DNA from: Gongronella butleri
Lineage: Eukaryota; Mucoromycota; Mucoromycetes; Mucorales; Cunninghamellaceae
Length of the DNA stretch: 64,000 nucleotides
Assembly (NCBI GenBank): GCA_025201375.1
Contig: JAIWZP010000046.1
Coordinates: forward strand, 175,126 to 239,125
Direction: 5' to 3'
The notes beneath the pieces are model-generated. The model made no database searches. It saw only the letters and a list, made by a program, of their open reading frames with translations, and was not told where the DNA came from. This document shows positions 18,890 to 56,240 of the stretch, piece after piece (positions within the stretch are counted from its first letter, which is position 1; each line of letters opens with the position of its first letter). Both the position numbers and the translations under genes were made by a program.

Positions 18890-21800
18890 GTACTGTATTG
18901 TCGAAAGCTCGAAACAACAGACAAAAATGCAACAAATCACATTTTTTGCCAAAACCAGATGGCTAGCCCTTGGTTTTTATATCATTTTTGTAGATAAACA
19001 AGGCAAGTTTACCCAGGGTGTGAGACTGTGAGTGGTGCAGCGATCCGAGGACCAAAATTTTACTGCTCGAGAATGCTGACAGACCCCCTTGGAAAATCAC
19101 TAGAAAATGTTAATTTAAGAAAATCAACAATGCTCGCTACCAAGTGCCCGCCGCTCCGCAAATCCTAATATCATTTGTGCATTTTGCATGCTTGCTTGTC
19201 GAACACAAAGTAAAAACAAGGGGCTAATCACGCCAGTGACGAGAAATTCGAGATTTTTCTAGAAATTCACAATTTCGGCCCTAACGCTCTCAATTGTGAT
19301 TCGATCATGCTGAAAATTTACAAGTAGTAAGAGACGCGCGAGAAGGTCATTTCACCTTAGTCCAGCAAAGCTGATGCGCAACCTTTTTACAGTTGCAACG
19401 CCAGATTTAAAATTTCAACTCCAATTTTCTCGACAAGGAACAAGGTACGTAACCCTCGGCAAGTTTGCAGCGACAAAAAAAGCAGAATTCGATTCACTCT
19501 GTCAAATAACACCAGTTTCACTGGCGTGCGACAAAAACTGGTCGAGAAATCCAAGTTTCTCAAATTTGACTTTGATTGCTTTTTTCTCGTGGTCCGTCAG
19601 GTCAACCCTCGAGTTTTATTACAGATTTGTTTAGAAAGACGGGGTCGATGCATGTAATGAGATGACTCTTCAAGCGCTGGTGTGTAGGGTGCCAAACTGA
19701 TTTCACTTTTCTCGGGGCACCAGCCAATCAATTGGAGGAACCTCCAGGCGCATTTTGACATGACCAAGAGATCACCTTGAGTTTTTCCAAAAATCCAAAA
19801 AAAAGATTTCACCACCAAAGACTTATCGCAACGCCACCAAACTTTCCCAGCCATAGGATTCGGCCCCTCTCTTTTCATAAAAAATTAAAACCCGGATGTC
19901 AAACAGCTGGTTCCGCGAGTAACTTGACATTGCTGAAATTTTGGCTGTGACGCATTTTTCAAAAAATCATTTCGCGGTAAAATCGTGCTTCAATCACTGC
20001 CAAACTTAACATCCGTACTGTATTTTTCAATGCCGCTCTTTTCAGAAAAAAATAAAAACGAGAGGGCACTCTGGCCGTTGTCGAGACATGCACAGATTTC
20101 ATCGATTTGCACAAATTGCAATATTGACGGCCACAAGCTCTAATTGGATCGATGCCAAAATCAGCCAAATTAGGTAATTTTGGCACGTCAATTTATAATG
20201 AAACGTTAAAATGCAGTGAATTATTAGGCAGTTGTCGACAATTTTAGAAAGTTGGCAATTTTCCCATGATTTCACAAATCTAGTCTTAAAGACCACAAAC
20301 CATAGAATGGTTGTCTCTCCAAACCTACACATATGATTACTGTATTTCTTGCCGTTCTTTCTCTACAAACTCTTAAAAACCAGAGGTCAGCTTGATCGTT
20401 GTGCAGATGAATCCAAAAGGTCGTTATTTTCACAAATTTGGCACTGGATCTCGAAATATTTTGTGGATCGCGGAGAAAACAGCAACGAACGAAAGAGACG
20501 CACTTGAGTGTCATTTCTGGATTGTTTGCTTGCCCGATGGGCGAACTCTGCACGCGTGCAAAAGTCGATCAAACATTGGATTAATTTTCAAGTTCGATCA
20601 TCTCCACAACCGGAAAAACAACCACCGGTGTTTTTAGCGTGTCGAATGAGGCTGCTTAATTGCTGTCGAATGCAGCAAGTTTCACTGCGATCTGATCAAA
20701 ACTGATGGAGAAAATAACTTTTCCTAGAGATTTCTGCAATTGCCCTTTACTCGAGAACGGTCTAATAAACTTGTGATTTTTATTCCAGTTTTACCAACAA
20801 ACCTGGGGCAAAGCACCTAATGGGATGACTTGCGGCGCGCCAGCTTGGGTTTGAACTTTCTGCATCGGTCATTTTACCAGCCTGCTGCAGCCCACTCAGT
20901 GCACAAAAATGTGCAAAATAAAAAATTAAAAAAAAGTAAAAAAAATAAAAATTCCATGCAATCCACGCACCTTAATTTGGAAGAGTCAACCCTTAAATTT
21001 TTGCAAAAACATTCGCACCAAATTAGACAATTTTACTCAGTCGATCGCCGTTCATGCGTCACTCTTTGGGCAATTTTCTTAAGTTGGGGCAACCTGCCAT
21101 TTTGCGCGTCTATCACGATTCATCGGAGTTACCGGTTTGGGATGCATTGATCACTCGGAGTTCAAAATTGGCCGTTTTAGAATTTAAAATTGTGACCCCT
21201 GAATTTTTCAAACGTGGTCGTAGCGCTCTGGGGGTTTAAGCTTTTTTGTTGCAAATTTTGCGCTGAATTCGATGCAGATATTTTTGAGCGGGGTGGGCCA
21301 TGCAGATGGCGAGATGAATGCAAAATAGAAAAAATAAAAGGTTTTTGAAATTTTCGAGCCCAAAAAAAATCAGGTAGGTTCGTCTTGAGCATTGGGCTGT
21401 AGTTTGTGCCGTGACACATTTTTCGTTGGCTGGTGAACAGGCTGTAAAAACATTTCTGGAGGCACAGCGCCGGCAAAGTCCGAAAAACATGCTTCTTGTT
21501 GTTTGATCGACTTTTTCAAGCATGCAAAGATTGTTCATCTGGCATGAAAACAACCTAAAAATGACAACCGAGTCCGTCTCTTTCGATCGTTGCTGTTTTC
21601 TCCGCGATCCACAAAATATTTCGAGATCCAGTACCAAATTTGTGAAAATAACGACCTTTTGGATTCATCTGCACAACGACCAAGCTGACCTCTGGTTTTT
21701 AAGAGCTTGTAGCGAAAAAACGCCCAGAAATAATCTAATGTGAAGGTTTGGAAAGACATTCTTTATATGGCTTTGTGGACTTGATAAAGACTAGATTGGT

Positions 21801-27409: not shown

Positions 27410-28012
27410 ATTAGTATTCATGGCGCGGCGGACACTTGGTAGCAGGCATTGTCGATTTTCTTAAATTGAGATTTTCTAGTGATTTTCCAAGGGGGTCGGT
27501 CGGCATTTTAGGGCAGTAAAATTTAGGGCCTCGGATTGCTGAGCCACTCACACCCTGGGTAAACATGCCTTGTTTGTCCACAAAAATGATATAAAAACTA
27601 AGGGCTAGCCATCTGGTTTTGGCAAAAAATGTGATTCGTTGCATTTTTGTCTGTTGTTTCGACAATAGGCGATTTTACAGTAACTCTTTTTGGTCTTATG
27701 GTGCGTCTCATCTATATCATACTGTAAATTTATGCGAAATGCATTTTCGCAGGACTGAGCGATCCGATCTCTGTAAAAACTTGACATCGTCGGACTTTTA
27801 AGTTGTAAATCCATTGGTCTTAATTTGGTACAATTCTGTCAGGTTCGCTGAGAAAAACGCGTAAAATATTATTTGGCGCTGGTTTTCATTTATAACTTAA
27901 AAGTCCGACGATGCCAAGTTTTTACAGAGATCGGATCGCTCAGTCCTGCGAAAATGCATTTCGCATAAATTTATGATATAGATGAGACGCACCATAAGAC
28001 CAAAAAGAGTTA
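27410..28012. repeat. Foldback fragment C ending in a 120-bp hairpin
   Basis: 27420-27665 matches the outer end of the foldback left arm in the same orientation as copy B (34450-34720). It is followed by an almost perfect inverted repeat: 27676-27800 and 27893-28012 pair over about 120 bp around a spacer of about 95 bp. The two hairpin arms differ mainly by a TA versus TACTGTA change (27720-27726 against 27972-27973). Confidence 0.7.
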
Positions 28013-28118: not shown

Positions 28119-28562
28119 AATTTTTATTGTGAATAAAGAGCAAACTCTGGGCTATCAAATGAGCCCACTCTTGGGGCATTGCGATCACTGGATGGTGCGC
28201 AATGGCATTTTTAGAAATCACCAGCTTTCCAAGGGGCATATCGGCAATCGCAGTTGCATCTTGAATTTTTTTCTCAGATCGCCACGCCACTTAATCGTGT
28301 GGTATAACACGCCTCAGACATAATAAAAATGCAATAAAATTCAGGGGTCCATTGACTGGTTTTGAGGTAAAACGCATTTTTGTCAGCTTGGTGCCGTGTA
28401 CAGTATTTGGTCGAAACTCCAAAGTCATCTCGATGGGAAATTGTCACAACGCTTTGCAAAGCATATCATTCAAAAGAGCAATTTTTGGGCTTTCAAATGA
28501 ACCTACTCTGAGGGCGTTACAATCACTGGATGGTGCGCAATGGCAATTTTTGTAATTACAAC
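28119..28562 (+). repeat. Pair of diverged direct repeats of about 100 bp
   Basis: 28119-28220 and 28465-28562 share, in order, AAAGAGCAA, CAAATGA.CC, and CACTGGATGGTGCGCAATGG. They lie about 345 bp apart inside the non-coding part of the second pogo remnant. Between them sits a copy of the dispersed module that is also found in the foldback repeat and the HTH array. Confidence 0.6.
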
Positions 28563-34300: not shown

Positions 34301-34830
34301 ATTTCAGCATGATTGAATTACAATTGAGAGTGCTAGGGCCGAAATTGTGAATTTCTAGAAAAATCTCGAATTTCTCGTCACTGGCCTGATCAGCCCCCTG
34401 TTTTTACTTTGTGTTCGACAAGCGAGCGTTTAAAATGCACAAATGATATTACTGTAGGATTCGCGGAGCGGCGGGCACTTGGTAGCGAGCATTGTTGATT
34501 TTCTTCAATTGAGATTTTTTAGTGATTTTCCAAAGGGGTCGTCGGTCAGCATTTTTAGGGCAGCAGTAAAATTTAGGTCCTCGGATCGCTGCACCACTCA
34601 CACCCTGGGTAAACATGTCTTGTTTATCTACGAAAAGGATATAAAAACCAAGGGCTACGTAGCCATCTGGTTTTGGCAAAAAATGTGATTCGTTGCATTT
34701 TTGTCTGTTGTTTCGACAATAAGCGATTTTAACCCTTTTTGGGCCCTAAATTTATGCGAAATGCATTTTCTCAGGACTGCTTGATCAGATATCTGAAAAA
34801 AAACTTGACATCGTTGGTGTTTTATATTCA
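31312..34830. repeat. Foldback repeat copy B (inverted relative to copy A)
   Basis: Runs as the reverse complement of copy A: 31312-32110 is the (shortened) right arm, 32110-33030 the spacer, 33030-34830 the left arm. The spacer and right arm are almost identical to copy A (for example the translations of 31973-32374 and 21236-21637 agree throughout; 32460-32777 differs from 20830-21150 by one three-base deletion). The left arms differ at many sites. The outer end (34745-34815) contains one arm of the hairpin seen in fragment C. No gene is called inside. Confidence 0.8.
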
Positions 34831-38080: not shown

Positions 38081-41000
38081 ATGTCTGGTCCAGGTAAGTG
38101 GGTCTTTTGGTTGTGTTTTTAGCTTATTCACGACGCCTTTTATTAAAGAGCCGTGGGCTGCCGAGCTGACTGACGGCGAGCAAGAGTATTATGGCCTCTT
38201 GTACAAGTACGTCGCCGAGGACAAGCCTGTGGACACCGTGTTCGAGGCCTTGGCAACGGCCCAGCGGTTGTCCCCCACACAGAGCGTCCAGGTAAAACAA
38301 GGGTGACAAACAGGTGGTGGGGCAATTCATTGTCAAACTCATGTTTTTGTGTGTTTATTTTTTTTTTTTTTTGCACAGCTCCTCCGTGCCGCATATCAAA
38401 ACGACACATCGGTCAACAACAAGCGAGCGTTTTTTGTGGCCCTCAAGCTGATTGCCTGTACACAAAACAACCAGAGCCCCTCGTCTCCTATTTTAGCAAC
38501 CAGTAAGAAGGCCCTTTATTGTACCACCCTTTTTTTTTTGTAGAGTTGCTCACTTTATGAACATGTTAGAAACCCCACTGCCCGTGTTGGATGGCTACGA
38601 TGTTGTCACGGCATCCAATCGGCAAAAGTATCTGCGCATTTTCCACGCGTCAGGCCCTGTGCAAGACAAATTGGCCGCTGACAAGGCCATGAACGTGCTG
38701 ATGCGCTCCAAGCTGCCCGTCCCATTGTTGAGCCATATCTGGTAAATGCACAGCATGGACTTTTGCCGTTTTATTTTCATGGCGGGTTTATTTTAATTTT
38801 GATTTTCATTGTTTTTCCAAAAGGAATTTGGCCGACACGCAACAACAAGGCGCCTTGGATCGTACGGCGTTTGTGGTGGCCATGCACTATGTTGCCAAGG
38901 CAATGGCCGGCAATTCGTCGTTGCCGCAGCGCGTGCCCGACAGCTTGCTCCAATCTATCCATGCTGCCGCCGCCGCATCCACGCCCGCCTCTCCGGCAAC
39001 AACACCTGCCCAGGTCACAAAATCAACGCCGCCACCTCCCCCACCCGCGTTGACTCGCTCACGCCCGCCTCCCCCACCCGTGCCGGCCACACGCGCAGCA
39101 CGAAATGCACCACCACCACCCGCCAATGCGCAACCAAAGCAACAGACGCACGCCCAGCGCTTCTTTTCACCCCTGCGCTACCCGGCTGGCCAGTGGGCAT
39201 TGGATGCCGCGGAACGCATCGCCTACAAGGAAGCATTCACCTCGTTCCCGCATCAAAACAAGGACTACATTGAAGGTAAAAACAATTTTTTTTTAAAAAA
39301 AAAAATTAGCCCCCTTTCGTCGTGTTTACAAGATTTTTTTTTGTGCAGGCTCTGAGGCTGTGTCGTTCTTTGTGCATTCGACCCTGCCGCCTGAGCAGCT
39401 GGCGACCGTGTGGGATTTGGCTGACACCAAAAACAAGGGTGTGTTGTCATACGAGGAATTCGCCGTTGCCATGCATTTGATTCGTCGTGTGCGCGGCGGC
39501 ACGCCCCTACCCGCCACGCTACCACCAACATTGCTTCCCTCAGTCCTGGAACAACCACAAGGTAAGTGTGAAAAACGAGAAAATGAGCGTATCTTTCCTC
39601 TGTCGTTCATTGATGGTGAGTTTAACCTCCTTTTTTTTTTACGCGCTCCAGTGGCTGCTCCTGTGCCTGCGGCGGCCCCGGTGGTTTCTGCACCTCAGCC
39701 GCAGCGCGATCCTGAGCAATTGAAACAAAAAGTGGCCGAGACACAGCAAAAGCTTGACGAAGAAGAGGCGGCCGTAGCGGATTTGAAGCAATTGGCGTCT
39801 CAGCAGGCGCCCGTAGTTGCTGACCTGGAGGCACAGCTTGCGACGCTGCAGGCATCCGTGCAGCGGGCGACCGAGGAGCGTCAAGAGTGGCAGACCAAGC
39901 TGGACACGTTGAAACAAACGGAAACGGAAAAACGACACAAAATTGCGCAGCTTGAGCGTGAATACAATGCGACGCAGGCCCAGGTTGCCCAGTTAAAGGC
40001 ACAACACCAGCAAAAGGCCGCACTCGCCACCATTGCCGATCGCCAGCTCGATGCCGCCCAAAACGCACGCGACAAGGCGGAAAACGACCTCAAACTCGCA
40101 CAAACCGCCCAATTGGAGACCCCTCCAGGTAAACCATTGAAAATGAGCTACAAAAATGAAAAAAAACACGTGTGGACAACCCAATCTGACCTGTTCCCCC
40201 ATTTTTCCTTTTTTTTTTCTCCCTTTTTTCTTTTCAGCGCCACCCCCACCTTCCAGCCGCCACGGTCGCTCACCAAGCTCGGCGTCGCCAAGCAGCACCG
40301 CGTCGTCCACGCGTGCCAAGTCGACGCGCCGTCCGCCGGCCCCACCTCCCTCCAAGAAGCGCACGTCGACAATCGAGCCATCGCCCGTGGCCAATGCAGC
40401 AGCGCCACGTGCGGCCTTGGCAACGGAGCCCGCGCTGTCTGCGTCGCCCGAGCACGTGGATGAGGAGCCGCAGCAAGAAACGGCCAAGTCGACCGCCGCC
40501 TTGGCAGCCGCAGGCGTCGGTGCCACAGCCGTGGCCGCTGCTACTGCTGCTGCTGCTGCTGCTGCGGCCGTTGCCATTGACACAACCACATCCGACGACA
40601 GCATGCCTGCAATTGCTGAGCAGCCTCTCGATACCAAGCAAGCGGATTTGCTGCCCGAACAGGCACCCGAAGAGACACCCGCAACAGAACAAGAGTCTCC
40701 AGCCATTGTGGAAGCACCTGCTGGGCCCGAGGAGCCCGTTGTCGAAGAGAAGCCTGTGCAAGAAGAGCCCCTTGTCGAGGAAAAGGAGGAAAAGGAGCCA
40801 AAGGAGTTCACTGAGCCTGTTGCACCAGTGAATCCATCCATGGGTGACCAATTGGAGATATTGCCATCGATTGACAAGCCCCTGGTCCAGGATGATGCGA
40901 TTGTCGCGGTCGACGCGCTTGCCCAGGCACCGCTCACTATGGAAACCGCCAATGTGGAAGAACCCGCCAAGGAGGAAGAACCCGCCAAGGAGGAAGAACC

Positions 41001-43077
41001 CGCCAAGGAGGAAGAACCCGCCAATGTGGAAGAATCCGCCAATGACGCGTCTTTTGCCGAGCACGACGCGATTGCTGCGGTTGATGCGCTTGCCAAGGAG
41101 CCCCTGACGATGCAAGATGCGCAAGACACCACCGTTGCTGCAGAGGAAGAGGCAGAACCTGCTGTGGACGCCAAGGAAGTCACCCCGGTCACGGAATCTG
41201 CCATTGAACCGGTGATCGCCAAAGAAGAGCCCGCCATCGAGGAACAAGCCGCCATTGACGCGCAGGATGACGTGTCGGTCCACGAAGAAACGACCACGGA
41301 CAAGCCTGCCGAGGAAGAGCCCACTGTCGATCAAGAAGAAACGACCAAGGATGAGCCTGTCGAAGAAAACCCCGCTGTGGATCAAGAAGAAACGACTACG
41401 GACAAGCTAGTCGAGGAAGGACCCACTGTAGATGACGAGCAAACCGCCATTGCGTTCGAAAAGGATGAAAAGGACGCCATTCCTGCTTCTCCCCCTGTTG
41501 TTGCTACCGATTCCGTGTCGTCCCTGGATAAATTGTCCACGACGGTCGCTGCGGCATCCACCACCACGGCAAGCATCACGACGGCGACGAGCCAAGACGA
41601 GGAGGACGCCACCTCCGATGACGACGACGACGCGACATCGAGCGAAGACGACGACGACGATAAGACGGCCTCGGAAGCTGAGGAGGAGGAAGAAAAACAA
41701 GAGGAAGAACAAGAAAAACACGAAAAACAAAAAGAAATCATTGAAAACGACGAAAACGAAAAAGCCGAATTGGACAATTCAGACGATTCGGACGATTCGG
41801 ATGACAATGCACCACTGGCCACGGTTGTTGCTGGCGGTCCAGCGGGCGATTCGCCAGAAATGCACGATTTCGAGGTGGTTGAGCACGAAGCGTCCATGTC
41901 GTCGTCATTCATGTCTGCTGGGATGGGGCAAACCGATCTGATGGATGAATTCGACGCCGCATTCTCGGAATCGTTGCCCGATGCGCAAGCAGCCACAGCC
42001 ACCACGGCCCCGGTGACAGATACCGAGTTCTCAGAGGCCTTTGACGACGCGTTTGACGCGGCATTCCAACCACACACCGCTGCCAATGCCAATGCCAACG
42101 CCAATGCCAACGTGGCTGCGCCTAAATCGACGGAATTCTCCTCGGCCTCATCCTCGGGCTTTGACGACGCCTTTGACACCTTGCCCGCTTTGCAAACCTC
42201 CTCCGAGGCACAGGACACGGGCTTCCAAGACGCCTTCACGGCCGCGCCAGAACCATTCACGGCCCACCGCGACCCGCCCGCACCGCCCATCGCCCAATTC
42301 GCCCAAATGGCCCCCGTCGCCGCCAAATCCACGTCCGAACCCCTCGAATTCAATCCATTTGACGACACCATGGCATCGCCGCCTGCCCCTCCTCCCGTCG
42401 CCGTTGCTGCGCCACCCGCTCCATCGGTGGTGACGCCCATGCCCATCGATGAAGAGCCAAAAACGACAACAACGACCACGCACACTACCCCACCACCTGC
42501 GGCACCCCTCCTCCAGCAGCTGGATACAACCCCTTCGCCCATCCCGGCTTCCGCAGCACCTGCTGTCGCCGCCATGGACGAGTCGCACGCGCTCAATGTG
42601 CCCAAGGGATCCAATGAAGCGCCGCGGTCCGCGCCTGTTGCCTCCACAAAGCCCGACGAGCCCGCCACCAAGAAAAAGGGCGGCCTGTTCTCCCTGCGTC
42701 TTGGTAAAAAGGACAAAAAGGATAAAAAGGACAAGGATAAGGGCAAGAAAAAGGAAAAGAGCGGCAAAAAGTCGTCGGTCGGCAGCTCCATGGCCGCCGC
42801 AGCCACCAGCTACTCGCCAGCAGACGAACATGCAGCACCCTCTTCGCATCATGCCCAGCCCCCACAGTTGCAGCTCTCGGAACAAGAGGCTTTCAACGTC
42901 AATCTGTCTGCCATGACCGACCAGGAAATCATGGCCAATCTGCGTGAATTCGGCGTCGACGCCGATTCCGTACGCACACTGACCAACATGGGCTTCACCG
43001 TGGAACAGGCAAAAGAGGCCCTAGAGCGCTACGACTATGACATTCAAAAGGCAACCAACTTTTTGCTCGATCAATAA
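38081..43077 (+). CDS. EDE1: Ede1/Eps15-like endocytic scaffold: three EH domains, coiled coil, UBA
   Basis: Early-arriving scaffold of clathrin-mediated endocytosis at the plasma membrane. Eight exons: 38081-38093, 38149-38291, 38379-38502, 38546-38741, 38824-39275, 39349-39561, 39652-40128, 40238-43077; total 1,485 residues. EH1 (about 1-95) is divergent; EH2 (about 110-185) ends HIWNLADTQQQGALDRTAFV; EH3 (about 290-370) has TVWDLADTKNKGVLSYEEF with a calcium-loop-like segment. A coiled coil (about 395-535) begins EQLKQKVAETQQKLDEEEAA. A long acidic, Pro/Ala-rich tail follows, with tandem PAKEEE repeats (40960-41030), an NPFDD motif that could bind EH domains, and a lysine cluster (42690-42770). 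The last 45 residues are a UBA domain (LTNMGFTVEQAKEALERYDY). This order is that of yeast Ede1. Exon 4's acceptor is a TAGAG choice, resolved by frame. Confidence 0.9.
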
Positions 43078-43639
43078 TAGATCAACGGCCATTGTCTGCC
43101 TTTTTTTTTTATTGTGTGTGTGTTTACCCCGGATGCTCCCCACCTCCTCCCCATTGTACTTGTCCCATTCTCCTTTTAGCCCCAATCAATCAATACAGTG
43201 TGTTTTTTTAATCTCTTTTTTTCAATTTTGCCGCCTCGGCTTGACTCAGCGAGCTTAATTTCCACATCGTACTCTCCATTTCCATGATGCATTACCGTGC
43301 GTACTTTTGCCCTTGATTGGATCGCAGCAGCATGAGCAAACCGCACTTTTTATGTCTTTTAATATTTTATGGCCATTGTGCGGAGGACATCCGCCAAACG
43401 TGCCACCGGCTTCATACAAAGGTTCAACGCTGCTGTTAAAAGTTGAATGACCTGCGTCAAAAACAGGGATGGATCGCGAAGCGAACGAGAAAAAGTGCGA
43501 CAAGAGGCTATTTTGTAGTGTTTTGGTCATTTGCCAACGAAAAGACAATCGACGAGGTCATGAGCTCTGAAGCTGGGTTAATCCACGTTTTCTGACTCCC
43601 ATACACGAGTTGCTGCGGCCACCAGGTGGCGTGCTACAA
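43078..43639. other. Intergenic, 3' side of EDE1
   Basis: Follows the EDE1 stop (TAA TAG). Contains T-rich stretches and an untranslated region; the minus-strand open frame at 43255-43548 has no family resemblance. The first unit of the HTH tandem array begins near its right end. Confidence 0.5.
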
Positions 43640-44163
43640 CAATTTTTCAAAACCAGGATTTTTCCTAAGGGGTCTGTGAATTTGAAAAGGAGAGAATTTA
43701 GGTCCACAAATCGCCATGCCCTACAACTACATGGTACAGTAAATCGCGTCTCAGAACCGAGAAGAATGCAATAAAAGGCAAGCGTCCATTAACTGGTTTC
43801 CGTTTAAAACGCGAAAAGGTGCGATTTTTCAACTCAAGGCAAACTCAACGAGGATTGGCCGCAGCGCTTTCAAAGTCATAAAAGAGCCTGGCTCGCAGCG
43901 TACGTGAACATGGGTGATCACTGACAAGAGTGATTTTTTGACAACTTTTTCACAGTTTTAAAACCATATACATTTTTCGACGCGTGATTAACCGCGTCAA
44001 ACGTCGAGTTCCATGCGTCTGTTATTTTTCAAATTTATGCATCCGACGTACCTCTTGCTAATGGACGCGTCAGCGCGGCTCTTTGGATGCGTTTTTCGTG
44101 TGTCATTCGCGATTAAAGTTTAAACCAAAATCTGCCATTGCTCGTGAGCCGTCATGGACCACA

Positions 44164-44199
<36 letters not shown>

Positions 44200-44743
44200 C
44201 TTTTTCGCGGTTTGTTCATGCAGCGCATCTTATGGGTAAGTTTGGCGTCATTCTGGAGACCTAATTTTTCAAGTTTGGTTTTGGGGTCTCGCGACAGCTG
44301 GTTTTTTGGATTTGGGCATTGGCGTGCCCGCAAAGATGTTTGATCCACATGAATGGAGTCCTACTCAATTTTTCCTGCTTTCCCGCTTTTCAGGTCACAA
44401 GAAACGTGTTTAGGCGGTGGTTGAGTTGCGATGGTCCCTCGAGCAATTTTCAGTTCTGCCCAATCTTCTTAAAATCAGCGCTTTGACATCAATTCTACGT
44501 CAAATCATAAGGACTCAAATACGAACCAAATGATGCGCGAGAACGTCTCTTCAGAAAAAAAAAAAGTCGCTTTGCGTGGTCTACACACCTGGCAAGCTAA
44601 TGAAACATGACCAAATTTGCAAAATACTGGCATTTTCGCGACGGGTGTCTCATCGCATTGGGAGTATTAAAATAAAACAGATTGAAGTGCATGAATTTAT
44701 GGATCCAGTAGAAAAGTAAAAGAAAAGCAAAGACGACGATGCA

Positions 44744-46078
44744 TCAAATTAGAATACAAAAAGGAATTTCGTCTAAAAATTCGATGCGCGCCATTGTTTC
44801 CGCGGCAGATGAGCAGCGAGGTGCAATTTCTTCGCATAGTGCCGGCGAGTCGACTTGCTCCTCCTTGATAATGAGCTGTGTCTGGGCATTGGTCTTGTAG
44901 TTCACGCGTTTGACATTGGCAATGCTTGTTCTGTGCTGTTCCTCTATCTTGACCGAGTCTTTGCTCTCTTCATGGAGCTTTTTGAGCCCTTCCATAGAGG
45001 CCATAGATGGATGAGCAGGTCGTCCATCTACCTTCATTTCGCTTTTTATCCTCATCACTGTTCTTAGAGAGCGGCCACAAGCGTTCGCCATGTCGGCTAT
45101 TGTCATCTCGCAGAGAAGGAGGCGTCTGATCTTTTGTCTTTCGCACTCTGTCAAGCGTGTGTACTTGCATGGCAAACGACGAATTTTAGACCTTTTCAAA
45201 GGTGGTTGGATGATATTGGCTGCTCTTTTGACCTTTTGTACGTTGGATATACAGAAGCCGCATGCTTTAGCCACATCCTCGCAAGTCTCGCCTTGCTCAA
45301 GGCGTCTTTTCATTTCTTCCTTTATGGCTGGCGTAAGGCGTTTTGCGTACGAGGACGTCAGATTGCGGGCCTTGCAGAACCTTCGTATTGAGGAAGCGCT
45401 GACGCCACACAATTTGGCTGTCGTGAGTGTCGACATCCCCTCGCCTATGCACTTGATGATCTTGTCATTATTGTCGCCGCCAGTTTTACGATACTGTGTG
45501 CTGATTCCGAATTTCTTTTTCACCAATTGGACGAAAGGGATCGAGACACCGCAATCTACTGCAATATCTTTCTGTGCTTTACCAGCGCGGAGCTGCTTTT
45601 CAATCTTTTCGACCGTGTCTTTATGGTACTTCTTTCTGTCACCAGGGGACGGGATATTGTTCATGAATTTCACGAGTTTGACTTTTTTTGCTGTCAACTT
45701 GCAGATGCGAGCTGTTTCTGCTTCGGAAACGCCGTCCAGCGCAAGCTGTGTAATCTGTTGTAGTTGGGCATCGCTGACTAGTGGAGGGGCAGGCCGTTTC
45801 AATCGATAACGCGAAACCGTCGACGGACTTACATTGCATGCTGCAGCCACATGAACTTGTGGCTTGCCTTGATCTAATAGTTTTTGGAATTTTTTGATCG
45901 TTGATGCGCTGCATCTTTCGGGGGCCATGTGCGTCTTGGGAAGGTTGTGCTTGCGTTGCTCTCTGGACACCAGGCCGATACTCACACCACATTGGCGCGC
46001 CGTTTGATTATATGACAGACCACTCAACAAACACGCCTTAATTTCGTCGCGTGTGGCTTGCTTAACTAGTCTGCTCAT
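44744..46078 (-). CDS. Multi-helix-turn-helix protein, array copy 1 (eight HTH-like repeats)
   Basis: Intronless, 444 residues from ATG 46076-46078. The upstream open frame is pyrimidine-tract sequence and not conserved as protein, while the chosen Met is conserved in all three copies just before V-x-QA-x-R-x-E(I/V)KACLL. Nearly the whole protein is a series of about eight repeats of about 45-50 residues with the pattern I...L..G.S...(I/T)A..CGVS...V....: roughly residues 5-47, 56-99, 102-145, 154-196, 204-247, 254-297, 312-355, 365-405. Examples are LSYNQTARQCGVSIGLVSRE and MSTLTTAKLCGVSASSIRRF. These look like resolvase/homeodomain-like HTH units. No catalytic (DDE, Tyr or Ser) domain is present. 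The end is a conserved short tail (RIEFLDEIPFCILI). Likely a DNA-binding protein reading a long site; function unknown. Confidence 0.75.
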   Translation of the reverse strand: MSRLVKQATRDEIKACLLSGLSYNQTARQCGVSIGLVSREQRKHNLPKTHMAPERCSASTIKKFQKLLDQGKPQVHVAAACNVSPSTVSRYRLKRPAPPLVSDAQLQQITQLALDGVSEAETARICKLTAKKVKLVKFMNNIPSPGDRKKYHKDTVEKIEKQLRAGKAQKDIAVDCGVSIPFVQLVKKKFGISTQYRKTGGDNNDKIIKCIGEGMSTLTTAKLCGVSASSIRRFCKARNLTSSYAKRLTPAIKEEMKRRLEQGETCEDVAKACGFCISNVQKVKRAANIIQPPLKRSKIRRLPCKYTRLTECERQKIRRLLLCEMTIADMANACGRSLRTVMRIKSEMKVDGRPAHPSMASMEGLKKLHEESKDSVKIEEQHRTSIANVKRVNYKTNAQTQLIIKEEQVDSPALCEEIAPRCSSAAETMARIEFLDEIPFCILI

Positions 46079-47677
46079 GAATTTGAAATCGCAAGATCGC
46101 GACAAGAAAGAAAAAGAAATGAAACGAAAAAAAGGGGAGGGGAGCATTGAGTGTAGCGACGGAGTTTTTGTTTCACAGAGCGCCACGCGCCACCCCAATT
46201 CATGTCCAATTTCACATGTAACAATCCATCACATACGCGTCCATTTCAGGTCGACTCTCGGGCAGAGTCACTCAGATCAATGGCGATCTCATTCAAGAAA
46301 ATCGCGATTTTTTTGTTTGTTTTGCGTTGTCACTCCGTTGACACATGGTGTCTTTCACGTACTCAAAAAAAAAAAAAAAGCGTACAACATCTGGCATCGT
46401 TTTGCCTACTTGGCGCGAAGCGCTGCAATAGCTAACATGGCCTGTTCGCTTTGAAATTGTGAAAATAGTTGATTTTTTGAACTGGGATTACCAACGGGTC
46501 AGATTAATATCGTGTTTCTATTGCTTTTTTTGAGAAAAGAGCGGCCAAACTAAGTATAACCACGAAAAGTCAGGACATTACGGATCTCGATCGCGCGTAA
46601 CGATAATTTTCAGAATTGCCAATTTTTCAAGGGGTACAGTCGATTTGTTGAAAAGCCCAACGTTTAGGTCCTTAGATCGCCATGTCATTCAACTACATGA
46701 TAAAGCACCTCTCAGAACCGATGAGCATGCAATAAAAAGCAAGCGTCCGTTGACTGGTTGCCGAGAAAACGCGAAAGCTGCAAATTTTCATCACAAGGCA
46801 AACTGAACGAGGATTGGCCGCAGCGCCATCAAAATCATATCATCAAAACGAGCCTGGCTGGCAGCGTAAGGAGCATTGATGATTAATGAAAAAAAGGTGA
46901 TTTTTGGTATTTTATCACGGTTTTAAAAACATATATATTTTTCGACGCGTGATAAAGCGCGTCAAATGTGGAGTTCCACGCGCCTGTTACTAATCAAATC
47001 CATGTATCTGGAGCATATCTTGCTAATGCACGCGTCGGCGCGGTGCTATGGACGCGTTTATTGTGTTTTAATTGCAATTGAAATTTAAAGCCAAATCCGC
47101 CATTGCTCGTGAGTCGTTATATGGATCACGCTCTTTTTTGACATTTTTCGCGGTTCGTCCGTACAGTGCATCTTGTGGGCAAGTTTGGCGTCATTCAGGG
47201 GACCTGATTTTTCAGTTTTGGTTTTGGGGCCTCGCAAGAGCTGATTTTTGATTTGCGCATTGGCGCACGCGCTAAGGTTTCTGACACGGTTCCAAGAGAG
47301 TCCCACTCCATTTTCCAGCTTTCTAGCTCACAGACAGACAAGTTTTGGTGGTGATTGAGTTGTGGTTGTCCCTCAAGCCATATGGAATTGAGTCCAATCT
47401 TCTTAAATCAGCGCTTTGACATCAATTCCACGTCGAATCACGATCACCCAAATACGAGCAAATGATGCACAACAACATCTCTTCCTTAATAAAAAAAAGT
47501 CACTTTGCATAGGCTAAACTCGGCGGGTTGATGAAAAATGACCAATATAGCAAAATTGTTGCATTTTCGCGACGGATATCTTATCGTATTTGGGGGTAAA
47601 GTCAAACGAGGGATAGGATGTGAAGTGCACGATTTTATGAATAAAAATGTAAAACAAAAAGCGAAGACGGCAATGAA

Positions 47678-49024
47678 TCAAATAAGAATACAAAAAGGGA
47701 TTTCGTCTAAAAACTCAATGCGCATTATTGTTCTTGGGGCAGACGTGATGCCAGGTGCAATTTCTGCGCATGGTGCCAGCGAGTCGACTTTTTCTTTCTT
47801 GACAGCAGGCTGTGCTTGGGCATTGGCCCCGCAGTTCACGCGTTTGGCGATGGCAATGCTAGCTCCGCGCCGTTTCACCACTTTGGACGTGTCCTTGCCC
47901 GCTTCATGGAGCTTTTTGACCTCTTCCATACTGGCCACAGATGGATGTGCTGGTTGTCTGGATAGCTGCAGGTTGTTTTTTAACGCCATCACAGTCGATA
48001 CACAGCGGCCACAGGTAATCGCCACATCAGAAACCGACATCCCGCTGACTAGGAGCTGTTTCATCTTTTGTGTTGTGCAATCTGTCTTTTTTGAGCGGCT
48101 GTGCGTGACAAAACGAACTTCTTTGTACTTTTTGGAAGGCCATGCAATGACGTTGGCTGCTTTTTTGATCTTTTGCACGCAGAATAAAGAGACGCCGTGT
48201 GCTTTAGCCGCTGTCTCCCAAGTGTCACCTTGCTCAACGCGTCTTTTCAGTTTTTGTTTTATGCCTGGCGCGATGCGACGTGGGTACAAGGGCGTGAGGT
48301 CGCGTGCTTTGCACACCTTTCGTACAGTACTAGTGCTGACGCCACACACGTTGGCTGTCTTGGAAATCGACATCCCCTCGCCGATGCACTTTGTGATCTT
48401 GTCAATTGTATCGTCGCTAATTTCAGGACAGCGGCTGTCGATCCTGAATTCCTTTTTTATCATTTCGACCAAACAGACAGAGACACCGCAATCAGCTGCA
48501 ATTTTTTTGAGTGGATCACCAGTGGTCCGGAGCTTGTCGTAAATTTTTTCAACCGTACCCATGTTGCGCGTCGTTTTTTTGCCAGCAGAGTGAATATCGT
48601 TGAGGAATTTCACGATGTTGACGGTGCTTTCCCTCAATTTGCAGATGCGAGCTGTTGCCGCCTCAGAAACACCCTCCAGTGCAAGCTTTATAATCTGTTG
48701 TTTGTGGGTATCGCTGACTTTCGGAAAGGAGAGGGGCCGCTTCAATAGATGATTTGAGACCGTCGCCCTACACACATTGCATTCTGCTGCCACCTGGGCT
48801 ACTGTCTTGCCTTGCGCATAAAGTTTTCGAATTTTTTTGATCTTCGACGCACTGCAATATCTAGGGTTCTTGCCCGTTGACTTGGGAAGGTTGTGCTTTT
48901 GTTGCTCATTGGCAACAAATCTATAGCCCACCCCACATCGACGCGCCGTTTTACGCATTGACAGGCCGTTCAACAAACATGCCTTAATCTCGTTGCGTTT
49001 GGCTTGCTCGACTAGCTTGCCCAT
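47678..49024 (-). CDS. Multi-helix-turn-helix protein, array copy 2
   Basis: Intronless, 448 residues from ATG 49022-49024 (MGKLVEQAKRNEIKACLLNG). Same architecture as the gene at 44744: about eight HTH-like repeats, for example LSMRKTARRCGVGYRFVANE, KTVAQVAAECNVCRATVSNH and MSISKTANVCGVSTSTVRKV, followed by a charged linker and the conserved tail RIEFLDEIPFCILI. Diverged from copy 1 by many substitutions, yet the frame is fully open, which suggests selection since duplication. The promoter side shares the pyrimidine leader (AAACGAAATGAAAAAGAAAT on the plus strand) with the other copies. Confidence 0.75.
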   Translation of the reverse strand: MGKLVEQAKRNEIKACLLNGLSMRKTARRCGVGYRFVANEQQKHNLPKSTGKNPRYCSASKIKKIRKLYAQGKTVAQVAAECNVCRATVSNHLLKRPLSFPKVSDTHKQQIIKLALEGVSEAATARICKLRESTVNIVKFLNDIHSAGKKTTRNMGTVEKIYDKLRTTGDPLKKIAADCGVSVCLVEMIKKEFRIDSRCPEISDDTIDKITKCIGEGMSISKTANVCGVSTSTVRKVCKARDLTPLYPRRIAPGIKQKLKRRVEQGDTWETAAKAHGVSLFCVQKIKKAANVIAWPSKKYKEVRFVTHSRSKKTDCTTQKMKQLLVSGMSVSDVAITCGRCVSTVMALKNNLQLSRQPAHPSVASMEEVKKLHEAGKDTSKVVKRRGASIAIAKRVNCGANAQAQPAVKKEKVDSLAPCAEIAPGITSAPRTIMRIEFLDEIPFCILI

Positions 49025-50308
49025 GAATATGATTCGGCTAGTTACCGACAGGGAGGAAAAAGAAATGAAACGAAAAAAAAGGGGGTGTAATCGGAAACGG
49101 CGACGGCGTTTTTGTTTCAAAGAGCGCCACGCGCCACCCCAATTCATATCCAATTCCACATGAAACAATCAAGCGCATACGCGTCCATTTTAAATCTACT
49201 CTTGAGCAGAGTCACTCGGATCATTGCGATCTCATTCAAGAAAATAGTGAATTTGAATTTTTTCGATTTGCGTTGCCAGTCCGTTGATACAATGGTGTCC
49301 ATCGCATATTCAAAAAAAAAAATTAGCATCTGGCATCGTTTTGTCCACTTGGCGCGAAGCGCTACGGTACATACATGGCCTGTTCGCTTTGAAATTTTGA
49401 AAATAGGTGATTTTTTTTGAACAGGGATCACTAATGATCAGATTAACCTTTTGCTTTATTGTTTTTCCCGAGAAGAGAGCCACTAAATTAGGTATAAATC
49501 GAAAAAGTCAGGACAATCAAGATGCTCGATCGCTCATAAAGACGACTTTCAACAAATTGCCAATTTTCCAAGGGGAACATCAAGGATTGGAAAATCACAA
49601 ATTTAGGTCCTTATATTGCTATCCCATTTAAACATGGTACACCGCGTCTCTGAACCGATGAAAAGAAAAGAAAAGCTTAGCGTCCATTGCCTGGTTTCCG
49701 TGCAAAACGCAAAAACTGCAATTTTCATCCCAAGGCAAAGTCATCGAGGATTGGCCGCAGCGCCAAAGTTATTTCATCAAAAAGAGCCTGGCTTGCTGCG
49801 TACTTGAATATTGGTGATCAATGAAAAAAAGGCATTTTTTGCCAGTTTTCCCACCGTTTAAAACCATATCTGCTTTTCGACGCGTAATAAAGCGCGTCAG
49901 ACGTCGAGTTCCACGCGATTGTTGCTATTCAAATCTGTGAGAGTAGTGTACGTCTTGCTAATGCACGCGTTGGCACAGCTCTATGGACGCGTTTTTTGTG
50001 TGTTATTCTCGAGAAATATGGAATTCAGCCCATCTTCTCAAATTGGTGTTTTGACATCAATTCTACGTCAAATCACAAGCACCCAAACACGAACAAAATG
50101 ATGCACAAGAACGTCTGTTCAGAAAAAAAATCGCATTGAATGGTCTACCCATAGCAGGTTGATGAAACATGACCAAAATAGTAAAATAGCAGCATTTTCG
50201 CGACGCATGTCCCATTGCATCGGGAGTATTACAATATTAAAAAGGGGACAGAATGTGAAGTGCACGTATTTATGGAAAAAAAAAGTGAAAAGCAAAGTCA
50301 CTGATGAA

Positions 50309-51656
50309 TCAAATAAGAACGCAAAAAGGAATTTCGTTTAAAATTTTGACGCTCGCCATTGATTCGACGGCAGACGTGCTGCCAGGTGCAATTTCTGTGA
50401 ATAGTGCTAGCGATTCGACTTGTTCCTGCTTGACAATGGGTTGCGTTTGAGCATTGGACTCGTAGTTTACGTGTTTGACGGTGGTAATGCTTGCTCCGGG
50501 CGATTCCGCCAACTTGGTCGAATCCTTTCTTTCTTCACGGGGGACCTCGACCTGTTCACGAGGCACTTCAATTTCTTCCAGATTGGCCACAGGTGGACGA
50601 GCGGGTTGCCGGTATAGATGCATTTTGCTCTTTATCTTGAACACAGTGGATTTCGAGCGGTTGGAAGCAATTGCCACTTGTAATAATGACATCCCGCTGC
50701 GTAGTAGGTCCTGGATTTTTTGTATTTCGCTCTCTGTCACGAGTGGGCTCAAACAATGCTCTTTGGCGCTTTCGGAAGGTGCTTGGAGCCTGTTGGCGGC
50801 CTGTTGGAAGCATCGCACGCTGAATAAAGAAAAGCCGTACGCTTTGGCCACTTCCTCGCAAGTCTCGCCTTGGTCAAGGCGCCTTTTCATTTCCTCTTTT
50901 ATGGCCGGCGTCAGGCGTTTCGCGTACGAGGACGTGAGATTGCGTGATTTGCACACCTTTCGTATCGTAAACGTGCTGACGCCACACATTTTGGCTGTCA
51001 TGAGTGCCGACATCCCCCCGCCAATGCACTTTGCGATCTTGTCCATTTTGTCGTCGCTTGTTTTATGGTAATAGTTGATGCCGAACTTTAGCTTCACCAT
51101 TTCGACCAAACGGGCCGAGACACCGCAATCGGCTGCAATTTTTTTGAATGGTTCACCCGCGCGGAGCTGCTTTTGAATCTTTTCGACCGTGTCTTGGTCG
51201 CACATTGCTTTTTCGCCGGGAGAGTGGACATCATTGAGAAATTTCACGAATTTGACGTTCCCTTGTTGTCGATTTGCAGATGCGGGCTGTTTCCGCATCG
51301 GAGGCACCGCCCAGCGCAAGCTGTATCATCTGTTGCTTTTGGGCATCGCCGACTCCTCGTAGGGGGATGGGCTGTTTCAATCGATAGTTTGTGACCGTCG
51401 TCAAGCTCACATTGCATGCTGCTGCTATTTGAGATCTTGTTTTGCCTTGCGCATAAAGGTTTTGGATATTTTGGATCGTTGATGCGCTGCACTTTTCGGA
51501 GTGCGTGTGTGACTTTGGGAGGTTGTGCGTGCGCTGCACCTTGGCAACAAATTTGAAGGTCACGCCACATTGGCGCATTGTTTCACGCATTGACAGACCA
51601 CGCAACAAGCATGCCTTAACCTCGTCGCGTGTGGCTTGCTCGACAGGCTTGTACAT
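50309..51656 (-). pseudogene. Multi-helix-turn-helix gene, array copy 3, one frameshift
   Basis: ATG at 51654-51656 (MYKPVEQATRDEVKACLLRG) opens repeats 1-3; the frame then breaks between ASDAETARICKSTTR and NVKFVKFLNDVHSP (near 51255-51270), where copies 1 and 2 read straight through. The second frame continues through repeats 4-7 to the conserved tail (ASVKILNEIPFCVLI) and a stop at 50309. The segment between the last HTH repeat and the tail is expanded with EVPREQVEVPREE. One indel explains the break, so it is a young pseudogene or a sequencing error. Confidence 0.7.
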
Positions 51657-52840
51657 GAAAATAATACCACAAAATAGAGACAGGAAAGAAAAAGAAATGA
51701 AACGAAAAAAAAAAAAAAGGTGAGCAAGGGGGAGCGGTGATGGCGTTTTTTTCAATGAGCGCCGTCGCGCCACCCCAATTCATGTCCAATTTCGCACGAA
51801 AAATTCATCACCATACGCGTCCATTTCAGATATGCTCTGGAGAAGAACTGTTCAGATCGACGGTAATCTCATTCAAGAAATTGGCGAATTTGGATTTTTT
51901 TGCATTTTGCGTCGCCACTCTGTTAATACGGGTGACATATAATAAAAAATGAGAGTACACCAGTTGGTATCGTTTTGCCCGCTTGGCGCAAAGCGCTACA
52001 ATACCTGCATATCCTGTTCGCCGTAAATTGTAAAAATGGCTGTTTTTTGACCAGGGATCACCAATGATCAGATTAATCTCTTGATTTTATTGTTTTAATT
52101 GAGAAGAGAGCTCTCAAATTGTGTATAAACACGAAACAGGCTTGTAATATTGATGCTCGATCGCGCGTCATGACGAGGTTGAAAATTGCCAATTTTCCAA
52201 GGGGTGCAGTCGAGGATTTGAAAAGCACAAAGTTTTTGTCCTCAGATCGCCATGCCATTCAAATACATTGTAAAGCACCTTTCAGAATCGATGAGAATAC
52301 AATAAAAAACAAGCGTCCATTGACTGATTTCCGAGAAAAACGCGAAAAGCTGCGAGTTTTCATCACAAGGTAAACTCAACGAGGATTGGCCGTATCGCCA
52401 TCAAAGTGGTGTCATCAAAAATAGTCTGTTTCGCGGCCTACGTACACATTGGTGATCAATGAAAAAAGTGACTTTAAACAACTTTTTCACTGTTTTAAAA
52501 CCATATACATTTTTCGACGCGTGATAAACCGCGTCAGACGTCGAGTGCCACGAGCTGCTATTATTCAAATTCATGGATCTAGAGTGTCTTTTGCTGATGG
52601 ACGCGTCGGCGCGGCTCTATGGAAGTGTTTTTCGCGTGTCATTCGCGATTGAAATTTAAAGCAAAATCTGCCATTGCTCGTCATTCACCAATTGGATCGC
52701 TCTGTTTTTTGGCATTTTTGTTGGTTTCGCAATGTGATGCTTCTTTTGTGCAAGTTTGGCGTCATTCTGGGAACCTGATTTTTTTGATTTTTGATTTGGC
52801 AGCCGGTCATGATATATTTTTGATTTGCGCATGCGGCGCC

Positions 52841-53875
52841 TCCACGACCTTTTACAATAGCAAATGGTGCTCTACATGGCGTTTTGAGCTCGTTATTTCA
52901 CATGAGGCTGTGCTTCGGCGTACTAAAATATTTTGGATTGGCAAGTTGTAATCGAAGCAATACTAAAATGATAGTCTAATATGTTATTTTCTGAGTGAGC
53001 AGTTGTTGGTGTCTCAAAATTCGAATTGGATGGAAAGCAAGGTATTAAGATCCAACCATTTCAAGTTCTCTTGGCTAGCTGCTCCTTTAAATACGCGTTG
53101 TCCGTGGAATTCAAGGCAAAATTTCTTCTCGACGGCCAGCTCGCCAAATTCCAAAAGAGCCCTGAGAATGGGACTTTTGCAAAAAAAAGACATTTAATGC
53201 CAATGAGGGGACGGTCCGACAAAATTTGAAACAGATTGGGTGGTCTCAACGCCAGCAATCTTGAATTTTCTGCGCTTTTTTGACATATTTGTATTGCTTT
53301 TTTGCAAACTTTGTTGATCTCAAGGGGGTGGCAAGTCGCCTACAGAATGCGCAAGCCTTCAAGTTATAGCTAGCCCTCGGTCATCACACTGCGACGTCTA
53401 AACAAGTATTTGCAAAGTAATATCCGCAAAAAAGTTCAAAGTTTGCCAAAAATGAGACTGGAAAAAAATAATTTGACAAGCATTACAGCTTTTCCTTGGA
53501 TGCTGGTTGTTCATCCAGTTCGAATGAGCTCTGGACCAAGACAATGCAATCGAGTTTAAAAAAGCACGAGCTATCATATAGGTCTAAAACCAAAAGCTGA
53601 GGTTTTGACGCCGAAACGATAGAAAATATTGCCCCATCTCACTTTGTTCTATAGAACTTCACATTTCTGCTAAAAGTGTACTTGACAGTGTATTTTAATT
53701 CATTTGATTGTTAATTTTTTTTCAAAAATGGGGGAAAATGGTCCTTAAAACGAGGAGAGGGGTAAGAGAATGGGGGATTTGCAATGAGAAGCAACGGGGG
53801 GTGGGGTATAAAGATTTTTTTTTTTAAAAAAAAAGCCGGTCCAGCGGAACCAAATAAAAAAAAAACATGGCGACA
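52841..53875. other. Intergenic between HTH array and kinase gene
   Basis: AT-rich DNA with no recognised gene. The last fragment of the tandem array ends near 52840. Frames at 53003-53258 are short and unlike known proteins. AATAAA-like signals for the kinase (minus strand) may lie at 53840-53870. Confidence 0.5.
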
Positions 53876-56240
53876 TCATGTGCGTCGACGCGTCAGGATG
53901 GATGCATTGGCCATATCGAGTGTGAATCCCGTCGCATTGGGTGGCGTCGAAGTGACTTTTGGGCCCTGTGACACGGTGGTAGGTTGCAGCGGTGGTGATG
54001 TGGTGGCGGGATCGTAGAGCAATGCAGGTTTGAACGAGGCGGACAATGGCGTGGATGCCATTGTTTCTGTTGTGGTTGATGAACAGGAATGGCTGGACAG
54101 ACAAAGCGCGTCTGTCATTTGCTCTTGCAGCCGAAGGATCAAATGATCATCTTCCTGTTGCGTGCTTGTGGAACTTGGCGACAGACTGTCTGTTTCAGCA
54201 GCAACCAGGCCAAGTCGATGGCGCTGTAACACATCTAGAGCATCGTCCATGCCACTGCGCCCATCGTCGTCAATGTCCGAGGTTGTTGTGACCAGTGAGC
54301 TTGGAGTATCAATGCCATTGGTATGGATGCTGCCATACGGCGTGAAATACGACGATGACAGCTCGTGTCGACGCATTTGGCCTTCCTCGCGGTGCCGATG
54401 AATATCATACATGGCCACATCCATACACCGGTTCAATGCCTTTTTGCCGCCACCATTTGCCATTGCACCGGGGATCTGCAGCGGCTGAGATGACGTTTGG
54501 ATTGTTTCGCAGGCAATGGACGTCGTCGTCGATGCAGGCGCCAACACGTTCTCGACTGCTGGATGGGACTGGTCCTTCTTGATGGTATTTAAAAAAAAAA
54601 AAGATGACGTCGGACTTTATGCACTTTCTGGTCTTTTTTTATTTCTTACCTGCTGCAGGATCCAAGGGTGCTGCATGAATTGATGAATGTCGATGCGTTT
54701 GAGAGGGTCGACGCACAAAAGCTGCGCGACGAGATCCTTTGCGTCGTCGGAGATCGAATCCCACCACGGCGACATGAACGTATAATCGCCCCTAGCGACT
54801 TTGTCGGTCAAAATGTCAATATCGTCGTCATCGTAGAACGGCGGAAACCCGCAAAGCATCGTGTACAATACACACCCAAGCGCCCACATGTCCACAGATT
54901 TTGAGTACCCGCGACGCAACACAATCTCCGGTGCCGTGTAGCCCTAGAATCATCCAAAAAAAAAAAAAAAAGGCATTGGTGTGCGTGTCCTGCTTTTTTT
55001 TTTTTTATTTATTTTTTTTTTTTTTTACCATGGTGCCACAGGGCGTGTGTGTGGTCTCGTCCCACACAATCTTGGACAGGCCAAAATCGGCAATTTTAAC
55101 CTTGCCAATGCCGCCACCTCCATAATTCTCGATGAACGCACCCTCATCCACTTTTGGCTCGTCGTCGTCAGCGTCGGCGGCTGCCGTGGGCGGCTGGGTA
55201 TCATCGGTGCGGGGCAGGAATGGAATTGACTCGAACAGCAGGTTCTCTGGCTTGATGTCTCTGTCATAAAGTACGCATAAAATAAAAAAAAAGAGGGGTT
55301 GAGCAAGCCAAGGAAAAATCGAGAACCTTAAAATTCCTCTTTTGTATACCTGTGGACGACACCCTTGACCTCGTGCAGGTAGTAAATGCCATCGGCCACT
55401 TGCCTAATGCAGTGCCGTGCAAGGTCCTCGCTGAAATAGGTCAGGTGAACAATCTGCTGGAACAATTCACCACCTTGACAGAGCTCCATCACAATGAAAT
55501 AATGCTAGAATCGTCAAAAAAAACGTGTGGGTGGTCGCGTTTGCCCGTCGCGTCATGCAGAGCCAATAGACGCCTCAATTGTAACGCATGGCGTGGATTT
55601 TGCTTTGTTCTCCTGATCTTTTTTTTTCTTACCTCGGCTGTCTCTACAAAGCGCCGCAAAGAGACAATGGCGTCGTGGTCCACAGCCTGCATCAATTGCA
55701 CTTCCTTGAGAATGCTGATGCGCTGCCAAATTTAAAAAAAAAAAAAATGGGGCGTAAAAATAAGCGTGGGTCATGCGAGTTCATTGTCTTTGCAAAGCCC
55801 ATTTGGGGGGTCTTCCCTCTCTTTTTTTTTTTTCGTCTGTCATGCGCATCATTGCATACCTGTCTGGGCTTTAGGTTCGTTTTTTGGATGATTTTGATGG
55901 CAACAAGGTCGTTGGAAACCACGTCCTGCGCCTTGTACACGACGGAGAACGCTCCACTGCGATTTTTTTTTAAAAAAAAAAAATCAGGGGTCAGCTCCCT
56001 TTTTTTTTTTTTTTTTGTCCTCGTTGCTTCCTCGGGATGGAGGAAAGTCCGTTGTAAAACTTACTCGCCGAGCTTGCAAAGCAGCCGGTAGTCGTGCAAA
56101 TCATTGTAATTGGGCAGACTGCTTGGTGTCACGTCGTTCTCGATCCCCGTGTCCATGGTCGCACCGGATGATTTGCGCTCAGGGTGCTCTGACGATGATG
56201 CAGGAAGCACCAGCTCACTTAATCGATAAAGCCAATTCAT
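53876..56240 (-). CDS. srk1: Srk1/Rck2-type MAPK-activated protein kinase (CaMK group)
   Basis: Serine/threonine kinase acting downstream of the Sty1/Hog1 stress MAPK in fungi. Seven exons: 56065-56240, 55860-55956, 55633-55722, 55350-55504, 55029-55260, 54650-54943, 53876-54577; 581 residues. The glycine loop is [14 protein letters not shown] (about 57-70), the lysine in VAIKII, HRDIKPEN at about 172, DFG at about 230, then [20 protein letters not shown]. Between HRD and DFG lies the insert VDEGAFI...[14 protein letters not shown], a hallmark of the Srk1/Rck subgroup, here lengthened by Asp/Pro/Ala residues. [20 protein letters not shown] and the C-lobe follow; the tail (about 350-581) is S/T-rich with TP/SP sites. 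The start ATG 56238-56240 lies just after an acceptor-like TTACAG, so a 5' UTR intron or an upstream exon is possible. Confidence 0.9.

What the first reader, a model, noticed from the sequence alone, without database searches (positions are those of the whole stretch)
44744..51656. Tandem family of proteins built of about eight helix-turn-helix repeats and nothing else
Seen: three neighbouring minus-strand genes encode proteins of about 445 residues in which the pattern I...L..G.S...A..CGVS...V repeats about eight times, with a conserved tail ending EIPFC(I/V)LI. Known: single HTH motifs of this type occur in resolvases, Tc1/pogo transposases and sigma factors, usually one or two per protein. 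Inferred: a chain of eight could read a long DNA site or repeat. There is no catalytic domain, so they may be co-opted transposase DNA-binding parts, repeat-binding regulators or silencers. I know of no described family with this architecture.
Basis: partly seen in the sequence, partly recalled or inferred. Interest (0 to 1): 0.88.

Follow-up and report, generated by a model that had tools for sequence, protein, structure and literature searches.

The report
Fast-evolving multi-HTH DNA-reading protein family
A soil fungus carries a large family, seen so far only in this species, of proteins made of about five to eleven DNA-binding modules in a row plus one nearly unchanging tail, and the amino acids expected to touch DNA change fastest, as if the proteins were repeatedly re-aimed at new DNA targets.

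Summary
Genes A (44744-46078) and B (47678-49024) are intact single frames; the third (50309-51656) is broken by a frame change near 51267. A has eight helix-turn-helix (HTH) units by motif register, repeat HMM and AlphaFold2 (24 helices = 8 x 3; unit 8 poorly supported). No catalytic domain was seen.

The genome is that of Gongronella butleri (Mucorales). I count about 32 related genes or relics on 15 contigs. Searches of 5.8 billion proteins found relatives only there, plus one weak, different metagenome protein. The most constant part is the C-terminal tail, (F)LDEIPFxxLI.

Codon fits give dN/dS 2.0 (p=5e-5) at four recognition-helix positions, 2.5 (p=8e-5) in a held-out set; core 0.35, tail 0-0.26. 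In a third set these positions are again fastest but not above 1. Genes sit in tandem with a ~730-bp repeat (R) whose core has 933 matches.

Best reading: modular DNA readers with diversifying specificity and a constant tail, evolving like KRAB zinc fingers and built like a longer archaeal Cbp1. Target and silencing role are inference.

The parts
44744..46078 (-). Gene A: intact 444-aa protein of eight HTH units plus constant tail
47678..49024 (-). Gene B: intact 448-aa protein of eight HTH units plus constant tail
51231..51656 (-). Gene C, N-terminal part of a broken copy (match to B ends near 51267)
50309..51319 (-). Gene C, frame that carries the C-terminal part of the broken copy (match to B runs about 50312-51268)
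44747..44785 (-). Constant tail of gene A (IEFLDEIPFCILI)
47681..47719 (-). Constant tail of gene B (IEFLDEIPFCILI)
50312..50350 (-). Tail of gene C (VKILNEIPFCVLI)
43598..44329 (+). Dispersed repeat R, copy 1 (3' side of gene A)
   Evidence: nhmmer 8e-165
46585..47268 (+). Dispersed repeat R, copy 2 (between A and B)
   Evidence: (1.8e-175)
49524..50045 (+). Dispersed repeat R, copy 3, shorter (between B and C)
   Evidence: 6.7e-112
52155..52843 (+). Dispersed repeat R, copy 4 (5' side of gene C)
   Evidence: 2.1e-175

Best explanation
These are modular, sequence-specific DNA-binding proteins. Shown by computation: a row of three-helix HTH units joined by low-confidence linkers, a C-terminal region predicted disordered, a nearly constant terminal 13-mer; about 32 genes or relics in one genome; many open frames under constraint; diversifying selection focused on four outward positions of the recognition helix in two of three gene sets. 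Inferred: the units lie along the major groove and together read a long site; gene duplication, internal unit duplication and replacement of contact residues re-aim the array; the constant tail docks one common partner. Most likely use (inferred): recognition of repeated or transposon-like DNA (R, or elements like it) in order to repress or organise it, so that turnover of the target drives the change.
For: Eight units. Tail: a DNA pattern for F-L-(D/E)-(E/A/D)-I-P-F has 24 matches in the genome, reversed control 0, and 21 of 24 lie in family genes or relics. Selection: contact positions omega 2.01 (p=4.9e-5) in set 1 and 2.53 (p=8.4e-5) in held-out set 2, against core 0.36 and 0.35 and tail 0.26 and 0.0; the four-position pattern ranks first of 32 registers in all three sets. 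Open frames are kept where neutral change would leave 6.7 to 11.6 stops on average. Array growth inside a gene: C1 member, 141-bp unit x 6.6. Precedents: KRAB zinc-finger proteins (PMC5363842, passages) and Cbp1, three HTHs along a DNA repeat recruiting a chromatin protein (PMC10883916, passages). R within 1.5 kb of 13 of 17 family loci scanned.
Against: No binding, expression or knock-out data. Set 3 (C67) contact omega is 0.94, not above 1. With six canonical contact positions the signal is weaker: 1.47 (p=0.011), 1.39 (p=0.061), 0.83 (p=0.24). The four positions were picked after looking at set 1. The degenerate unit 8 of the set 1 genes gives 0.32. AlphaFold pTM 0.28, unit 8 pLDDT about 50. 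Adjacency of R lacks a matched control, and R may simply be carried along by duplication. A target in transposons is not shown.
Confidence: 0.5

Rival explanations
1. The R + gene unit is itself a selfish or once-mobile element, and the poly-HTH protein is its accessory DNA-binding protein, or a co-opted transposase part, that binds the element's own repeats. Contact residues then change because protein and its own site co-evolve, not because of host defence.
For: Gene and R recur together on several contigs, with R on both sides in C52 and C94; R core 933 matches; frames without introns; single units resemble transposase and resolvase HTHs.
Against: No catalytic domain in the Pfam rows shown; no clean ends or terminal repeats of R found; the copies compared are old, pS 0.275 to 0.507 over 16 pairs, with no recent near-identical dispersed pair among the matches to B (best 54%); the window array sits between a UBA-domain gene and a kinase gene.
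Confidence: 0.25
2. An ordinary lineage-specific family of transcription factors that regulate host genes (development, mating, metabolism), diversified after duplication.
For: DNA-binding arrays with a constant tail, in ordinary gene surroundings; ACGCGT in 14 of 20 upstream stretches, weak because the motif is common in the window.
Against: Omega above 1 at contact sites in two sets of old paralogues, and many relics, are more than I would expect of a few stable regulators.
Confidence: 0.15
3. Centromere, telomere or meiotic-drive proteins that chase fast-changing satellite DNA.
For: Same selection signature would be expected; many copies lie on short contigs of the assembly (one search lists contig lengths).
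Against: No satellite array was looked for or found at the loci; many dispersed copies rather than one or two genes.
Confidence: 0.07
4. A decaying family under relaxed selection, with the apparent pattern due to low constraint.
For: Pairwise dN/dS 0.48-0.84; several copies carry stops or breaks.
Against: Omega above 1 at positions fixed beforehand in a held-out set, strong constraint in core and tail, open frames at a divergence where neutral sequence carried a stop in 1,499 of 1,500 simulated runs.
Confidence: 0.03

Closest known systems
Cbp1 / Cbp2, archaeal CRISPR-repeat-binding proteins (NCBIfam NF040595; PDB 2lvs)
   Same: Only consecutive HTH units; Cbp1's three HTHs lie in order along a DNA repeat and recruit a chromatin protein (PMC10883916, passages). 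Best NCBIfam match in 5 of 5 proteins scanned, 42-68 bits; 2lvs is the best PDB sequence match of the family profile, E 1.4e-4.
   Different: Three (Cbp2: two) units against 5-11 here; archaeal; all 5 scores are far below the curated cut-off of 140 bits; no such tail or diversification is described in the passages I saw.
KRAB zinc-finger proteins (vertebrates)
   Same: Tandemly duplicated gene family, long array of DNA-binding modules with positive selection on the array, constant effector part, many pseudogenes (PMC5363842, passages).
   Different: HTH units instead of C2H2 fingers, tail at the C-terminus instead of a KRAB domain, a fungus; effector and targets unknown.
Pipsqueak / Psq and CENP-B-type HTH proteins
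   Same: Tandem Hin-type HTH units in a eukaryotic DNA-binding protein (Pipsqueak's four units are recalled, not from a call; one search found no held paper).
   Different: Psq model only once over cut-off, in B (21.2 against 20.4 bits); no other Pipsqueak domain seen; more units here.
HTH of serine resolvases/invertases and of Tc1/mariner, IS21, IS630 transposases
   Same: Unit fold: resolvase-type HTHs superpose at 1.2 A over 39-42 residues; HTH_7 and transposase HTH models match.
   Different: Those proteins have one or two HTHs with a catalytic domain; here 5-11 detected units and no catalytic domain seen.

Membership tests
Cbp1 (NF040595) | Score over the curated family cut-off (140 bits) | tested here: not met
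   42.3, 67.9, 51.8, 60.9, 47.0 bits in the 5 proteins scanned
Cbp1 (NF040595) | Protein made of tandem HTH units only | tested here: met
Cbp1 (NF040595) | Binds a repeated DNA sequence | not testable with these tools
   needs a binding assay
KRAB zinc-finger proteins | C2H2 fingers and KRAB domain | tested here: not met
   neither is among the Pfam rows shown
KRAB zinc-finger proteins (as a way of working) | Positive selection on DNA-contact positions of the array | tested here: met
   two of three sets above 1, all three fastest at these positions
KRAB zinc-finger proteins (as a way of working) | Binds and silences transposable elements through a common cofactor | not testable with these tools
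   no binding or expression data
Transposase (Tc1/mariner, IS21, IS630, IS1) | Catalytic domain with the HTH | tested here: not met
   only HTH-type or unrelated weak matches among the Pfam rows shown (25 of 34 for B, 25 of 30 for A; all rows for the two pieces of C); NCBIfam transposase models match in HTH stretches, below cut-off
Serine resolvase / invertase | Catalytic resolvase domain | tested here: not met
   not among Pfam rows shown
Pipsqueak / Psq | Psq-type HTH over the curated cut-off in each unit | tested here: inconclusive
   one stretch in B, 21.2 against 20.4 bits; not in the rows shown for A (25 of 30) nor for the pieces of C

The most novel reading that the evidence does not exclude
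A fungal counterpart of the vertebrate KRAB zinc-finger system built from HTH modules: each protein carries a long, evolvable DNA address and one constant tail that recruits a silencing or chromatin partner, and the family is in a continuing contest with dispersed repeats such as R. If the units follow a regular module-to-base rule, this would be a new class of modular DNA reader.
Probability: 0.4. Interest if true: 0.92.

Novelty: new variant of a known kind. Interest (0 to 1): 0.77.

Why it matters
Poly-zinc-finger families are the best-known case of DNA-binding arrays re-aimed by positive selection. A fungal family that does the same with helix-turn-helix units would show that the strategy arises from another fold. 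It offers a testable system (21 tail-bearing open frames in one genome, one constant tail, a repeat with 933 core matches as a candidate target) and perhaps a new modular DNA-binding scaffold.

Full report
SETTING. The window is G000:C52:175126-239125 of a 33.0 Mb assembly in 110 contigs. Family proteins on contigs of the same lengths are named hypothetical proteins of Gongronella butleri (BC940DRAFT), and PMC9117579 (passages) quotes 33.01 Mb for the JGI genome of this species. I take the organism to be G. butleri (Mucorales).

FAMILY. B matches 45 stretches of the genome. Grouping neighbouring stretches of one gene, and adding a member found by its tail at C34:708913, I count about 32 genes or relics on 15 contigs. 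Of these, 21 are open frames with HTH units and the tail (A, B, C94, C99, three on C44, C46, C52:94, C22, C31, C54, C67:727, five at C67:93-100, C1, C45:956, C34:708); P0011 (C45:617) is open with HTH units but has another C-terminus. Broken or fragmentary places include gene C, C78, C93:56, C93:74, C100 and C44:108. The C1 member (612 aa) has a 141-bp unit repeated 6.6 times at 87% matches, so arrays grow by internal duplication. Other gene arrays lie on C67, C44 and C46. A DNA pattern for F-L-(D/E)-(E/A/D)-I-P-F matches 24 places, reversed control 0; 21 of 24 lie in family genes or relics, 3 show no HTH in the stretch read (C33, C34:12452, C45:968335). The tail ends of 24 sequences are listed; the most deviant is YLDEKPFIILI (C45:956). 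The protein searches gave 7, 8 and 2 hits: all are the window's own or G. butleri proteins except P0012 (E 3.3e-4). The candidate choice is by exact words, and only about 8,000 candidates were scored. A viral scan gave none. Genomes of other Mucorales could not be searched, so restriction to this species is provisional.

SELECTION. Coding DNA of A and B is 72% identical (protein 53%) and the noncoding flanks and R copies are 73-81% identical: the proteins change about as fast as their flanks. Pairwise dN/dS is 0.48-0.84 over 16 comparisons. Positions 14, 15, 18, 19 after the motif G (HTH positions 12, 13, 16, 17 in the usual numbering; in Hin recombinase the base contacts S174 and R178 fall on 15 and 19; both recalled, not from a call) stand out for replacement in set 1; over 136 units of the family, 14, 15 and 18 are among the four most variable positions, with position 3, while 19 is less so. 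I fitted a GY94 codon model with shared branch lengths and one omega per class. Set 1 {A, B, C94, C-terminal piece of C}: contact 2.01 (against 1, p=4.9e-5), start of helix 2 2.08, linker 1.12, other repeat positions 0.68, core 0.36, tail 0.26. As the positions were picked, set 2 {C99, C44a, C44b} is the held-out test: contact 2.53 (p=8.4e-5), other 0.53, core 0.35, tail 0.0. Set 3 {five C67 genes}: contact 0.94 against other 0.40 (p=3e-5), not above 1 (p=0.71). Sliding the pattern {k,k+1,k+4,k+5} over 32 registers, k=14 ranks first in all three sets. With six canonical positions the signal is weaker: 1.47 (p=0.011), 1.39 (p=0.061), 0.83 (p=0.24). Unit 8 of set 1 gives 0.32. Synonymous differences at the contact positions are not raised (pS 0.20-0.42). 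Under neutral simulation at comparable divergence the mean number of stops is 6.7-11.6, and 1 of 1,500 runs had none.

REPEAT R. The flanks contain a dispersed noncoding repeat of about 730 bp (four copies in the array). The 23 dispersed copies fetched are about 70-73% alike with fading ends. A 20-base core with up to 3 mismatches has 933 matches in the genome, 484 and 449 by strand, reversed control 0. Among 17 family loci scanned with 1.5-kb flanks, 13 have an R match and 10 have one of at least 300 bp; in 7 of these 10 R is on the strand opposite to the gene. The loci at C1, C34, C45:617 and C45:956 were not scanned so. From the core density about 2 of 17 would be expected (my arithmetic), but gene and R duplicate together, shorter R pieces are common (four places elsewhere in the window), and no matched control could be made. 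R is a candidate target, not a shown one.

MECHANISM. Best reading: a chain of HTHs reads a long DNA site; specificity is re-aimed by replacing contact residues and by gaining or losing units; the constant tail binds a common partner. This is how KRAB zinc-finger genes are described to evolve (PMC5363842, passages), and archaeal Cbp1 shows that consecutive HTHs can lie in order along a DNA repeat and recruit a chromatin protein (PMC10883916, passages). Cbp1 is also the best NCBIfam match in 5 of 5 proteins scanned, far below its cut-off. Membership in either family is not met; the likeness is in working principle.

VERDICT. The selection pattern is the main new evidence. Function, target and partner remain untested.

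Noticed in passing
43598-52843 and genome-wide: Dispersed noncoding repeat R (~730 bp, fading ends, 70-73% alike among fetched copies, 933 matches of its 20-base core), class unknown.
   Followed up: partly
18923-19160, 27420-27648, 28155-28557, 34462-34702: Shorter R-like pieces elsewhere in the window, nearly all covering about model positions 10-314.
   Followed up: no
46235, 49179, 51815: ACGCGT about 160 bp upstream of A, B and C and in 14 of 20 upstream stretches of family genes; it resembles the MluI cell-cycle box (recalled). Common in the window, so weak.
   Followed up: partly
gene A near residues 414-422 and the same place in others: A psi-K-x-E motif (IKEE, VKKE, VKQE and the like), as in SUMO sites, before the tail in 12 of 24 sequences.
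   Followed up: partly
L065 342-2180 (G000:C1): Family member of 612 aa with 11 detected units, grown by near-identical internal tandem repeats of 141 bp.
   Followed up: partly
L066 564-1955 (G000:C45, P0011): Single protein with HTH units but a proline-rich C-terminal part and no such tail; perhaps an outgroup of the family.
   Followed up: no
40156-43077 and 54617-54922: The array lies between a gene for a UBA-domain protein and a protein kinase gene.
   Followed up: no
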